From assembly GCF_001758225.1 (NCBI RefSeq), contig NZ_MAST01000008.1, positions 62,001-126,000 on the forward strand: a stretch of DNA of 64,000 nt, in the 5' to 3' direction. Origin of the DNA: Humibacillus sp. DSM 29435. Its GTDB lineage: Bacteria > Actinomycetota > Actinomycetes > Actinomycetales > Dermatophilaceae. Positions 51,880 to 62,600 of this stretch are shown one piece after another; position 1 is the first letter of the stretch, and each line of letters begins with the position of its first letter. The notes beneath the pieces are model-generated. The model saw nothing but the letters and a program-made list of their open reading frames with translations, was not told the DNA's origin and ran no database searches. The translations under genes were made by a program, and so were the position numbers.

Positions 51880-51922
51880 ACAAATGAGTATCCCCTCTGG
51901 AGCGTTCCCCCCGCCACACTGC

Positions 51923-51965
51923 GGCCGGCCCGAGCTGGGTTAAACCACCCCAGCCCGGGCCGGCC
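51923..51965. terminator. Long hairpin upstream of the PfkB gene
   Basis: GGCCGGCCCGAGCTGGG and CCCAGCCCGGGCCGGCC form a 17-bp stem with one mismatch and a 9-nt loop. It lies 44 bp from the start of the minus-strand PfkB gene and may stop transcription entering from the right. Confidence 0.55.
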
Positions 51966-52004
51966 TGATGCTCAACCGGTCCACCACCTAACGTTCCGGT
52001 GAGG

Positions 52005-52100
52005 TGAGACGGGTCCAGTGAGCGACAGACGCTGCGGACCGGCAAGATTCGGTCCGAGTCGAATGAGTCGACTCCGAGCACATAGCCGTCATAGACCTGA
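52005..52100. repeat. Diverged intergenic repeat, copy 1
   Basis: GACGGGTCCA, then ATTCGGTCCGAGTCGAATGA and GTCGACTCCGAGCAC to TCATAGACCTGA recur with few changes at 53360-53470. The centre is palindromic (CCGAGTCGA / TCGACTCCG, 5-nt spacer). The minus-strand translation contains GVDSFDSDRIL, echoed as GVDSFDIDRML in copy 2. Confidence 0.6.
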
Positions 52101-52211
52101 CCTAACGGCACCCGGAACGGGCAACCACCCCGGGGCCGAGAAGAACCACCACCCGTCACGAACCACCCGCCCCGGCTGGTTCCCCACCTGAGCACTGAAG
52201 GGGTCAACATC

Positions 52212-52400
52212 ATGGTTCGCAACAAACTGGCCAGGGCAGTTTCCGCCCTGACACTCACCCTCGGAGTCACCGCCAGCGGCATAATTTGGGACTCGGTCGG
52301 AACCCAATCCGCCCCCACCACCGCCAGCGGTATTGTCTGGGACTCGGTCGGCCACCACGGCGGGTCTGCCGCGACCGATGACGGCAACCACTGGGGCTGA
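52212..52400 (+). CDS. Small exported peptide with an internal repeat
   Basis: 62 residues. MVRNKLARAVSALTLTLGVT is a basic-plus-hydrophobic leader resembling a Sec signal, with cleavage plausible at ASG. The rest carries TASGIIWDSVG (residues 20-30) and TASGIVWDSVG (37-47), an exact 17-residue (51-nt) spacing, then a Gly/His/Asp-rich end with NHWG. AGGGG lies 9 nt before the ATG. I know no family for it; a secreted signalling or modified peptide is conceivable. The conserved intergenic repeat lies 110 bp upstream. Confidence 0.6.
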   Translation: MVRNKLARAVSALTLTLGVTASGIIWDSVGTQSAPTTASGIVWDSVGHHGGSAATDDGNHWG

Positions 52401-53330
52401 AGCGGTTCCAGAACCGGAGCACCGCCGCCGCCCTAACGAAGTCGTTCACCTCGCACCTATGGAATCCCCTTCGGCACAACCAGATTGGACGGCATGCCAC
52501 AATGGCAATGGCCCAGTCTTCTGATGCCACGACGTGACCGTCGATTCTCCGGCTAGGTGCTGTGAGGAACTACTCGTGTTGCACCCTTGGACCCGCTGAC
52601 CCGTCGAACCGTCTCGCCCCCCGGTATCGCGGTCAGCGACCCCACGGCCCCGGTGTGACGAGACCCCCGTCACGCCGGGGCCGGCCGGACACGCACATGC
52701 GGCACCACCTCGACGGCGCCCCTTCTTGCAACGAACTCGACACCTCGCGACGGCGGTCCGAACCATGTCTGAGGTTGGCGACTCTGGCGTCACCCAGATC
52801 ACGAAGCCGAACCAAGTCAGCACGGAGCCTGCTGACAGCTGAACATCATGCGTCATCGCCATACCCCCTTCCTCAGAGCGGCACCGCGAGGCGAGCCCAG
52901 AACCAGTCGTCTGGGTTCACCCCAGCCCATGGCGCGCCTCACAAGGGCACTACGTCTTTGACCCACACACGAAACGTCCCGCGCCCCTACGGCCCGGTCG
53001 CTCCGCAGCCGGAGCCACACTGCCCGCTGCCGCGTGGCCCTGGGGTAGGTCGGTGGTGGGGTCGGTCTACCCGGCCCAAAGTTCTTCGACGCCCAGCCCT
53101 GCCCTGCCGTCCCACACCGACAGATGCCGTTCTGCCAGCATCTTCGCCAAGGGTCCAAGGTGCTGCGCTGTACCGTTCGTCGGCTCGTTATGCTGCAGGG
53201 ATCATCGTCTCAGCGGTCCGACTCCTTGATGCCCCTCTGTGTTTCGTGGAGCCGGCACGCACTCACGCTGCAGTTCACCCCGGGTGGGCCAACCCTCCTC
53301 GGACCGATTCGGCGTAACGGACACCAACGC
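52401..53330. other. Gene-free stretch
   Basis: About 930 bp with long but featureless open frames on both strands, rich in Pro/Arg/Ser translations as expected of non-coding GC-rich DNA. No ribosome site or family match supports a gene. Confidence 0.5.
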
Positions 53331-53359
53331 AGCACCCCAGCACCCCAGCATCACCGGGT

Positions 53360-53470
53360 CGATACGACGGGTCCATGCCAACACCTCCACTCGAGAGTCG
53401 TTGCCGGCCAGCAACATTCGGTCTATGTCGAATGAATCGACTCCGAACAGCAAGTGTCATACACCTGAGA
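53360..53470. repeat. Diverged intergenic repeat, copy 2
   Basis: CATTCGGTCTATGTCGAATG, ATCGACTCCGAACAG and TCATACACCTGA parallel copy 1 at 52005-52100, and GACGGGTCCA lies at the same end but about 15 bp further out. It lies upstream of menG. Confidence 0.6.
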
Positions 53471-53633
53471 CACCCGTCCACCACACCGCCCAGTAGCCAC
53501 CAAGGCGGCCACCAACCGACGACCTCGCGCGGCTGACCTGGACCCGCGGGCGAGGGTTGACCGCGCTGGCCACCGTGTCCTCACAGTGTCCGTTCGCACT
53601 GATGAAACGCTGTTCGAGAGTCGGAGCACGATC

Positions 53634-54368
53634 GTGAAGGATGCACACGTTTCCCCCAGGGGAGAGTCCCGCGCTGGGCTGGATAAGAGGCCCGCTCAGA
53701 TCCAGGACATGTTCGATCATGTCGCCCGCCGCTATGACCTGGTGAACATGGTAATGACCGGTGGGCAAGTCCGTCGATGGCGAAAGGCTACGACGGTGGC
53801 CATCGCCCCACGTCGCGGCGAACGCATCCTTGATCTTGCTGCCGGGACGGGAACATCTTCGACGCCGCTGGTCGCAGCGGGTGCCCGGGTGGTGGCCTGT
53901 GACCGGTCAAGAGGCATGGTCGAGGTGGGACGACGCCAGTGTCCCGGACTGCAATTCGTCGAAGGGGACGCATTGGACCTTCCCTTCGACGACGCCTCGT
54001 TCGACACCGTGACTATCTCCTACGGTCTGCGCAACATCGAGAACCCCCTCGCAGCCCTTCAGGAGATGCGACGCGTCGTCAGAGACGGCGGCCGGATCGT
54101 CGTCGCAGAGTTCTCAACCCCGACCTGGGGCCTGCTCCGGGGTCTCTACCGGCACTACCTTCCACGAGCGATCCCGCTTGTTGGCCGACTCGTGTCGTCC
54201 AACCCATTGGCCTACCAGTACCTCGCTGAGTCAGTGGCCGACTGGCCAGATCAGCAGGCGCTGGATCATGTGCTCGCAACTGCGGGGTGGGCCGACGTCG
54301 GGCACCGGAATCTAACCGCGGGCATCGTCGCCCTGCACTTCGCCTGGAATGGTCATCGTCCCCGCTAG
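53634..54368 (+). CDS. menG: Demethylmenaquinone methyltransferase (MenG/UbiE)
   Basis: 244 residues, SAM-dependent C-methyltransferase of menaquinone synthesis. It has LDKRPAQIQDMFDHVARRYD near the start, motif I ERILDLAAGTGTSS, then GDALDLPFDDASFDTVTISY and GLRNIENPLAALQEMRRVVR, the UbiE signatures. The GTG at 53634 behind GGAG is preferred. There are three differences from the usual VMTLGQDRRWR segment (VMTGGQVRRWR). It stands away from other menaquinone genes, so it may be an extra copy. Confidence 0.9.
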   Translation: MKDAHVSPRGESRAGLDKRPAQIQDMFDHVARRYDLVNMVMTGGQVRRWRKATTVAIAPRRGERILDLAAGTGTSSTPLVAAGARVVACDRSRGMVEVGRRQCPGLQFVEGDALDLPFDDASFDTVTISYGLRNIENPLAALQEMRRVVRDGGRIVVAEFSTPTWGLLRGLYRHYLPRAIPLVGRLVSSNPLAYQYLAESVADWPDQQALDHVLATAGWADVGHRNLTAGIVALHFAWNGHRPR

Positions 54369-54429
54369 CCGTGAGCGCTGCGGGCCACGTCCAAGTTAAG
54401 TCCCACGCGCCAGGAGGTCTAGGGCCGGG

Positions 54430-55238
54430 CTAGTGGCTCGTGTTTGAAGTTGGCTGACGGTTGGCTTTCTTGAGGACTTGTTCGGCGATCTTGTCCACAC
54501 GAACGGGTGGCAGCGGTCGTTCCAGCCATCGATGAAGGCTCGGATCTTCGCGTTGAGATCTCTGACGGACCCGAAAGAGCCGCGGTGGATGGCCTGGCGT
54601 TCGATGATCCCGAACCACACCTCGGCCAGGTTGAGCCACGACCCGGAAGTCGCGGTGTTGTGGACGTGGATCCGCGGGTTCGCCGCGAGCCAGCCCCGCA
54701 CCTCGACCTTCTTGTGGGTGGCGTAGTTGTCCAGCACCAGGTGCAACGCCTGCCCATCGCCGCGGTCGGGGTAGGCCCGGGCGACCTGCTTGAGAAACGC
54801 GAGGAACTCCTGGTGGCGGTGGCGCGGTTTGCAGGCTGCGGTCACTTTTCCGGTGGCGATCTCCAGCGACGCGAACAAGGTCGAGGTCCCGGCACGAGCC
54901 GCGGCTTCAGCGTCGATGGGGTCGGACTTGCCTCGGGTACGCCGGACCCGACGGTTCGGGCGGCACACCTCGTGGACGCTCGCGCCGGCTGCTTGCAGCA
55001 CTCTGCTCAGGCCTGCGCCGTAGCTGCTGGTGCCTTCGATGCCCCAACGGCAGCCCGGGCCCAGTTCGTGGGCCCACCGCAACAGGTCTTTGAGCCCAGC
55101 CGGGTCAGTGCTGCTGGCATGTTCACCCAGCCGGCGGCCGAGGCCATCGACCGCGACGGCAACGTGGAGATCCTTGTGGGTATCGACGCCGACAATGACG
55201 GCGCCGACGCCGGTAGCGCCGTGGAGTTCTTCTGGCAT
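54430..55238 (-). pseudogene. In-frame chimera of IS110 (5') and IS630 (3') transposases, frameshifted
   Basis: Residues 1-115 are IS110-type (VIVGVDTHKDLHVAVAVDGL, RWGIEGTSSYGAGLSRVLQA, RGKSDPIDAEAAARA with three of the DEDD acidic residues). At about 54897 the frame passes without a break into an IS630 C-terminal half (GTSTLFASLEIATGKVTAAC, LVLDNYATHKKVEVRGWLA, SWLNLAEVWFGIIERQAI). Near 54503 one base is missing, after which VDKIAEQVLKKANRQPTSNT continues in another frame to 54430. Neither parent is complete. Confidence 0.85.
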
Positions 55239-60808: not shown

Positions 60809-61061
60809 GTAGTGCGCTAGCTAACCGAACAGCCTCGATGGATCATCGTCGTACACCACCGATCAGGACTTGACCCCGGGCTCACCGCGCTGACCCTCCT
60901 GATGGCGCAAGCACCCGCTGGGGCCACCGACCAACCACCTTTCTCGCCGGATCGACAGCGGACGCCTGCTAAACAGGTTGCTTCCCCGTCACACCACGTT
61001 GGGTGCCTGGTCCGAAGTGCCTCATTGACTTCAACGAGGCTTGAGGTCAGAGACTCGTGTG

Positions 61062-62117: not shown

Positions 62118-62344
62118 CCCTGAGGTGGCCAACCCGGGTTGGGTGCTGGTCGGGCCCGAGCTCGTCCACCTCTCACCGACGCGCAGTGGGGCCGAGCTCA
62201 TCGTGCGTTCGGGACTGAGACAACCCGCTTGGTCCTCACCGTCACGCCAGCCGGCTTCGTATCGTCGTCCAAGTGTACTACGTGCGTGAGTACTGACCGC
62301 AGTTGAGCGCTGGTTGTGACCGCATCGGAACGCCGCTGCCATGA

Positions 62345-62600
62345 CTACATCCGGCACGGCACCAGCACCCTGTTCGCGGCAATAGAGATCGCGAAGTGCA
62401 AGGTCACCCGGGCCTGCAAACCGCGCCACCGCAACCAGGAGTTCCTCGCGTTTCTAGGGCAGGTCGCTCGCGCGCGCCTACCCCGACGAGGGCACTGGGA
62501 CCGAGCTGCACCTAGCGATGGACAACTACGCCGCGCACAGGCACTCGAACATCAAGGCCTGGCTCGCAGCATGTCTGACAAAACCGGGGCCATTCTTTGA
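62345..62600 (+). pseudogene. IS630-type transposase remnant
   Basis: GTSTLFAAIEIAKCKVTRAC and KPRHRNQEFLAFLGQVARA match the IS630 part of the chimera at 54430. After a shift near 62475 another frame continues PDEGTGTELHLAMDNYAAHR and HSNIKAWLAA. Only about 80 residues remain. Confidence 0.8.

What the first reader, a model, noticed from the sequence alone, without database searches (positions are those of the whole stretch)
52212..52400. Exported 62-residue peptide with duplicated TASGI(I/V)WDSVG motif
A convincing ribosome site, a signal-like leader, and an exact 51-nt internal duplication that keeps the core IWDSVG nearly unchanged point to a selected small peptide, possibly processed into two copies of a signal or modified peptide. 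I know no described family. No obvious maturation enzyme is adjacent, which would leave general proteases or distant genes.
Basis: partly seen in the sequence, partly recalled or inferred. Interest (0 to 1): 0.72.

Follow-up and report, generated by a model that had tools for sequence, protein, structure and literature searches.

The report
Repeat-bearing exported peptide in ArsR regulon
A small, apparently exported bacterial peptide that carries a short motif twice belongs to a three-member family in one actinobacterial genome, and its promoters share a predicted DNA switch with a regulator gene and a peptide-uptake gene, which makes it a testable candidate for a peptide signal in a group where such signals are hardly known.

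Summary
The ORF is real. 52212-52400 encodes 62 aa behind a good ribosome site, with TASGI(I/V)WDSVG twice, 51 nt apart. The duplication is not exact: 28/33 nt in the core, 35/51 over the unit. The same genome holds two paralogues on contig C27: 60 aa with two cores, 79 aa with three. Substitutions avoid amino-acid changes in two of three comparisons (P 0.0014, 0.006; third 0.13), so the frame is probably translated. No homologue was found elsewhere, including a scan of 84,980 species. All three promoters carry the palindrome ATTCG-N8-CGAAT. It also lies upstream of a DUF5937/ArsR regulator gene beside the third copy, upstream of an oligopeptide-binding lipoprotein gene, and upstream of DUF5937/ArsR genes in other actinomycetes (14 of 44 sites examined). 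So the peptides most likely belong to a DUF5937-ArsR regulon together with a peptide-binding protein. My preferred function is an exported propeptide whose IWDS units act as a signal taken back up. That step is inferred. A secreted effector is the main rival.

The parts
52047..52064 (.). Operator palindrome ATTCGGTCCGAGTCGAAT, predicted site of the DUF5937/ArsR regulator
   Evidence: Shared with both paralogues and the regulator gene; sites in own genome on C8 and C27, one weak site on C34; upstream of DUF5937/ArsR genes in other genomes; two exact sites in the window against 0.03 expected
52090..52095 (+). Putative -10 element CATAGA, 43 nt after the start of the palindrome (inferred)
   Evidence: Offset 43, 43 and 42 nt in the three peptide promoters, 43 in the SnoaL-type promoter; alignment
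52197..52203 (+). Shine-Dalgarno-like GAAGGGG
   Evidence: Sequence; GAAGGG conserved in all three peptide genes
52212..52400 (+). 62-aa exported repeat peptide gene (P1)
   Evidence: paralogues; coding constraint
52212..52274 (+). Signal-peptide-like N-terminus, likely cleavage VTA|SG (inferred)
   Evidence: Basic n-region and hydrophobic stretch in three paralogues, VTA/ITA/VTA at the same place; no signal-peptide predictor available
52269..52301 (+). Repeat core 1, TASGIIWDSVG
52320..52352 (+). Repeat core 2, TASGIVWDSVG
   Evidence: 28/33 nt identical to core 1
52648..52680 (+). GC-rich hairpin, probable terminator of the peptide transcript
   Evidence: Sequence conserved in the three copies; RNA fold -27.2 kcal/mol, z -2.6; z -4.4 for copy 2 but only -1.65 for copy 3
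52750..52873 (+). Decayed start of the trypsin-like protein gene that follows paralogue 2
   Evidence: 70.6% DNA identity to L013:7157-7281
53218..53531 (+). Duplicated end of the ArsR gene plus peptide promoter, 93.6% identical to the paralogue-3 locus, now in front of a menG-type methyltransferase gene
53416..53433 (.). Second operator palindrome in the window, ATTCGGTCTATGTCGAAT

Best explanation
The ORF is one of three paralogous genes for a short exported propeptide carrying two (P1, P2) or three (P3) copies of an IWDS core. Their promoters carry the operator of a DUF5937/ArsR regulator, which by the same operator also controls its own gene, a SnoaL-like protein with a signal-like N-terminus, and an oligopeptide-binding lipoprotein. 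I think it most likely that the propeptide is exported through Sec, cut at the TA|xG sites by signal peptidase and extracellular protease, and that the short IWDS peptides are captured by the co-regulated oligopeptide-binding protein as a self-made extracellular signal. Shown by computation: the family, the repeat number, coding constraint in two of three comparisons, the shared palindrome and its link to DUF5937/ArsR genes. Inferred: export, cleavage, uptake, signalling, binding of the regulator, and whether it activates or represses.
For: Three paralogues with 2/2/3 repeats. Amino-acid changes below expectation: P1-P3 19 vs 26.0 (P 0.0014), P2-P3 20 vs 26.5 (P 0.006), P1-P2 18 vs 20.8 (P 0.13); dN/dS 0.26, 0.42 and 0.54 (from the dN and dS). 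The coding indels are 6 and 51 nt. Palindrome with GA tail exact at P1, P2, P3 and the promoter copy at 53416, and at one mismatch upstream of the ArsR gene and of the oligopeptide-binding protein gene; backwards-pattern control 0. It occurs once per genome, beside the closest ArsR homologue, in four other genomes, and in a fifth beside it plus at one further site, itself beside another DUF5937-type ArsR homologue. Across the class, 14 of 44 examined sites outside this genome lie upstream of a DUF5937/ArsR-type gene. The binding protein is SBP_bac_5 (E 2.4e-62); its best solved relatives are mostly oligopeptide-binding proteins. P3 lies directly downstream of the ArsR gene and upstream of a TPR protein gene. 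P2 is followed by a trypsin-like protein gene.
Against: In the other genomes examined the operator sits between ArsR and a SnoaL-like gene (5 of 5 by tblastn) or an MFS transporter gene (7 of 7), and no IWDS peptide gene was seen there, so the regulator's ancestral job is not peptide sensing. 29 of the 44 examined sites have no ArsR homologue nearby. No convincing homologue of the peptide exists in any other genome searched. The P1-P2 comparison alone does not reject neutrality, its coding and flanking DNA are about equally conserved (82% coding; 83% and 81% flanks), and the P2 lineage shows 3 synonymous of 15 changes. I recognised no permease genes by eye beside the oligopeptide-binding gene (ORFs of 150 aa or more). 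No expression data.
Confidence: 0.35

Rival explanations
1. Secreted effector: the peptides are small antimicrobial or surface-active products whose expression is switched by the DUF5937/ArsR regulator in response to a small molecule, as its relatives presumably switch MFS transporters. They do not report back to the producer.
For: Relatives of the regulator sit beside MFS transporter genes (7 of 7 tested), which suggests small-molecule sensing. Three paralogues and a variable repeat number fit a dosage product. The co-regulated SnoaL-like protein also has a signal-like N-terminus.
Against: I recognised no immunity, dedicated exporter or modification gene next to the three copies. It does not explain why an oligopeptide-binding protein gene shares the operator.
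Confidence: 0.27
2. Ordinary small exported peptide or decaying duplicate: P1 is a relic of a duplicated peptide-protease segment. It may still be translated but has no specific role.
For: P1 lies in a segment that is about 81-83% identical to the P2 locus in coding and non-coding parts alike. The trypsin-like gene behind it is decayed. P1-P2 does not reject neutrality (P 0.13).
Against: P1 keeps the frame, the W, D and S of both cores, the C-terminal HWG, the ribosome site and an intact operator, whereas 36% of neutral P1-P2 simulations contained a stop. P1-specific changes are 6 synonymous of 13, with 27% expected.
Confidence: 0.25
3. RiPP precursor: the aromatic-X-Ser (WDS) units are cross-linked by a distant maturase into a multi-core modified peptide.
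For: Repeated aromatic-X-Ser cores recall aromatic-X-X cyclophane RiPPs (recalled). The TPR neighbour of P3 hits the RiPP TPR model HaaT, but only weakly (E 9e-4, 17.5 bits against a cut-off of 1125).
Against: A scan of frames of 120 codons or more with high third-position GC on contigs C8 and C27 found one CxxxCxxC frame, which reads like lysine 2,3-aminomutase (recalled motif), and no other radical-SAM candidate. The N-terminus looks like a Sec signal, not a RiPP leader.
Confidence: 0.08

Closest known systems
Tandemly duplicated RRNPPA propeptides (Phr3T, Phr105; PMC11343458, abstract and section list seen)
   Same: Short exported propeptide with more than one copy of a short core, cut by extracellular proteases
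   Different: Bacillus phage systems with Rap receptors. Here the genome is actinobacterial, the linked regulator is DUF5937/ArsR, and no receptor is shown.
Receptor-propeptide gene pairs of the RRNPP type (PMC10075063, passages seen)
   Same: Propeptide gene P3 lies between a regulator gene and a TPR gene; an oligopeptide-binding protein gene shares the operator
   Different: The TPR protein is 220 aa without a detected DNA-binding domain (the detector asks for 250-500 aa); the regulator is ArsR-like
BldK oligopeptide importer signalling in Streptomyces (recalled; only a search listing seen)
   Same: An actinobacterial oligopeptide-binding protein linked to a possible extracellular peptide
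   Different: No homology test to BldK was made; no developmental link is known here
DUF5937 ArsR-type regulators (Pfam PF19361)
   Same: The regulator next to P3 matches DUF5937 (partial, profile 151-264 of 267) and ArsR HTH models above their cut-offs and has the shared upstream palindrome
   Different: Elsewhere it is paired with MFS or SnoaL-like genes; among the genomes scanned only this one has several operators in front of peptide genes

Membership tests
DUF5937/ArsR regulon (for the peptide genes) | Regulator palindrome in the promoter | tested here: met
   Exact at P1, P2 and P3; same palindrome upstream of DUF5937/ArsR genes in other genomes
DUF5937/ArsR regulon (for the peptide genes) | Binding of the regulator to the site | not testable with these tools
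   Needs a binding assay
RRNPP quorum-sensing system | Adjacent receptor of 250-500 aa with peptide-binding TPRs | tested here: not met
   TPR neighbour of P3 is 220 aa, TPR_12 only; no TPR gene was recognised next to P1
RRNPP quorum-sensing system | Small exported propeptide next to the regulator | tested here: inconclusive
   P3 is directly downstream of the ArsR gene, but that regulator is not of the RRNPP kind and P1 stands apart from it
RiPP precursor | Maturase gene in the neighbourhood | tested here: inconclusive
   Motif scan of C8 and C27 for radical-SAM CxxxCxxC found one unrelated hit; other maturase classes and the other 52 contigs were not scanned
Sec-exported peptide | Signal peptide with cleavage site | tested here: inconclusive
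   n-, h- and c-region features by eye in three paralogues; P1 just below my hydrophobicity cut; no predictor available
Any described peptide family | Match to a curated model | tested here: not met
   No NCBIfam or Pfam match at E <= 1

The most novel reading that the evidence does not exclude
A peptide-based communication system in Actinomycetota in which multi-core exported peptides are sensed, directly or after uptake by the co-regulated oligopeptide-binding protein, by a DUF5937/ArsR regulator that was recruited from controlling MFS or SnoaL-like genes.
Probability: 0.12. Interest if true: 0.85.

Novelty: new variant of a known kind. Interest (0 to 1): 0.55.

Why it matters
The introduction of PMC10075063 (passage seen) states that actinobacterial communication signals are typically small molecules and that oligopeptide signals belong to Bacillota. 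A compact set of peptide genes, a regulator and a peptide-binding protein under one predicted operator gives a direct way to test for an exception. Separately, the work proposes an operator (ATTCG-N8-CGAAT) for DUF5937/ArsR regulators; the term DUF5937 occurs in only one paper of the searched library, on another subject.

Tried and rejected
Weak tblastn and profile hits in other genomes: I first read them, but on the wrong strand for the minus-strand hits; re-read all on the strand whose frame length agrees with the search output (19 of 20; L034 runs off the held stretch). L006-L012 and L033-L045 (all other-genome hits) show no exported repeat peptide. The nearest is L038 (G047, same family, E 0.0056): one HIVWDSLGHYGAV in a 50-codon frame without a signal-like start, probably chance but not excluded. 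The rest of the hits were not read. The degenerate DNA pattern for two IWDS units in 84,980 genomes gave 20 stretches; those in frame are coded tandem repeats or chance frames, none a short exported peptide. The collections may leave out records very near this genome (note). L090 (VGVWDSVGPT repeated) looks like a simple 30-nt repeat and was not followed. Viral contigs, plasmids and phages: nothing. Homologues of the trypsin-like protein (3 other genomes of 276) and of the TPR protein (6 other genomes of 276) have no comparable peptide beside them by a crude small-ORF rule; that rule also missed P1 itself. The palindrome allowed one mismatch is not remarkable in the window (2 found, 0.91 expected); exact it is (2 found, 0.03 expected), but the two window sites are related by duplication. 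Rfam: nothing in 51880-53640. PDB by sequence: only a weak HTH match for the regulator, none for the trypsin-like protein. No structure prediction was run, because the regulator is not among the sequences that tool admits.

Full report
What is there. The ORF at 52212-52400 encodes MVRNKLARAVSALTLTLGVTASGIIWDSVGTQSAPTTASGIVWDSVGHHGGSAATDDGNHWG. A GAAGGGG ribosome site precedes it. The two cores are 51 nt apart and 28/33 identical. The full 51-nt units are only 35/51 identical, so 'exact duplication' is wrong, but 20 shuffled windows never exceeded 25/33.

Family. The window is G000:C8:62001-126000 of a 5.02-Mb genome in 54 contigs. The same genome encodes P2 (C27:6659-6841, 60 aa, two cores) and P3 (C27:37177-37416, 79 aa, three cores). 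They share 69-70% protein identity with P1; W, D and S of both P1 cores and the C-terminal HWG are invariant. Random placement of the observed substitutions gives more amino-acid changes than seen for P1-P3 (19 seen, 26.0 expected, P 0.0014) and P2-P3 (20, 26.5, P 0.006), but not clearly for P1-P2 (18, 20.8, P 0.13). By lineage, synonymous changes are 6 of 13 (P1), 3 of 15 (P2) and 11 of 23 (P3), where about 27% is expected. Constraint is therefore likely overall, but it is not shown for P2.

No homologue elsewhere. A profile of the three gave matches at E <= 0.01 in 7 of 186 family genomes and 9 of 396 phylum genomes, its own included in each. All the others were read and none is an exported repeat peptide (which corrects a strand error); the nearest is a single HIVWDSLGHYG in L038. 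The genome-contig scan with the profile, a degenerate pattern scan, viral contigs, plasmids and phages gave none. No Pfam or NCBIfam model matches. The one other genome of the genus that I saw (G001, 94% complete) has no match to the profile and no operator site.

Operator. The promoter regions of the copies align. Each holds ATTCG-N8-CGAATGA. With one mismatch allowed, the hits in the own genome lie on C8 and C27 apart from one on C34, and the backwards control gives none. Besides the three peptides the sites are: a copy of the promoter at window 53416; upstream of an SBP_bac_5 lipoprotein gene (C27:12547); between a DUF5937/ArsR gene and a divergent SnoaL-like gene; and near the end of C8. 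The distance from the start of the palindrome to a -10-like hexamer is 43, 43 and 42 nt in P1-P3 and 43 in the SnoaL-type promoter. By eye this places the palindrome just upstream of -35, which would fit activation as well as repression.

Whose operator. The closest homologues of the ArsR protein found in 394 class genomes (43-47% identity: G703, G742, G696, G638, G623, G806) led to loci in which the palindrome ATTCGACCC(A/G)GGTCGAAT lies beside the ArsR gene in five of six. In those five a SnoaL-like gene (56-61% identical to the one here) is divergent from it (Pfam-tested in one). The motif ATTCGNYCNNNGNCGAAT, fixed after seeing these, was scanned over the class: 51 of 394 genomes had it, the own genome included. 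By my count of that listing there are 58 distinct sites outside the own genome. I looked around 44 of them (1.8-12 kb each). 14 lie directly upstream of a DUF5937/ArsR-type gene: five SnoaL-type loci, seven with a divergent MFS gene, two more at 28-29% identity whose start is extrapolated. One lies beside a decayed ArsR start (judged by eye), and 29 have no ArsR homologue nearby by tblastn at E 1e-4. The five were how the motif was found, and the seven were chosen because they coincide with ArsR hits, whose listing was cut short; 14 sites were not looked at. Chance would give about 0.01 of 58 (my estimate: a few such genes per 7 Mb). So the palindrome is very probably the operator of DUF5937/ArsR regulators, and the peptide genes are in its regulon. 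In the other genomes examined the regulator is not seen to control such peptides.

Neighbourhood history. P1 and P2 share about 800 nt at 81%, through the hairpin downstream. P2 is followed by a gene for a trypsin-like protein with a signal-like N-terminus; its Pfam score, 17.0, is below the cut-off of 20.6, but it has TAGHC and GDSGGP stretches (motif meaning recalled). P1 keeps only a decayed start of that gene at 52750-52873, with a further 63-nt piece at 60878-60940. P3 is preceded by the ArsR gene and followed by a 220-aa TPR protein. In the window, 53218-53531 is a 93.6% copy of the ArsR end plus peptide promoter, now in front of a menG-type methyltransferase gene.

Interpretation. Expression control is the best-supported part. 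The combination of exported multi-core peptide, protease-like neighbour, and co-regulated oligopeptide-binding protein resembles a propeptide-and-uptake circuit, and duplicated propeptides are documented in Bacillota (PMC11343458, abstract). But the receptor is unproved, the regulator's relatives point to small-molecule sensing, and an effector role fits nearly as well. I give signalling 0.35, effector 0.27, relic 0.25 and RiPP 0.08.

Literature. PMC10075063 (passages) says actinobacterial signals are typically small molecules. [quoted passage not shown] Seven searches listed no paper that I recognised from title or abstract start as describing this peptide or a DUF5937 operator; only the held open-access library was searched, and the lists were capped.

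Noticed in passing
window 53218-53531: A 314-bp copy of the ArsR gene end and peptide promoter (93.6%) sits in front of a menG-type methyltransferase gene at 53586-54368, which may have been captured into the regulon.
   Followed up: partly
window 52750-52873 and 60878-60940: Two pieces of the start of the trypsin-like protein gene of C27 lie 8 kb apart, as if an insertion had split it.
   Followed up: no
L154-L160, upstream of DUF5937/ArsR genes: The palindrome ATTCG-N8-CGAAT lies between DUF5937/ArsR and divergent MFS genes in seven other genomes: a proposed operator for an otherwise little described regulator family.
   Followed up: yes
L090:5795-5952: A MAG contig (HGW-Actinobacteria-5) has a frame with VGVWDSVGPT repeated about six times with a 30-nt period; probably a simple repeat.
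   Followed up: no
L038:1453-1602: A 50-codon frame in another genome of the family contains HIVWDSLGHYGAV, resembling one repeat unit; no signal-like start.
   Followed up: no
L058:6141-6158: A further operator-like palindrome near the end of contig C8 without an evident target gene.
   Followed up: partly
window 54429-54891 and 62328-62539: Stretches related (86% and 77% identity) to a transposase-like gene on C27 (named by eye), consistent with shuffling of this region.
   Followed up: no
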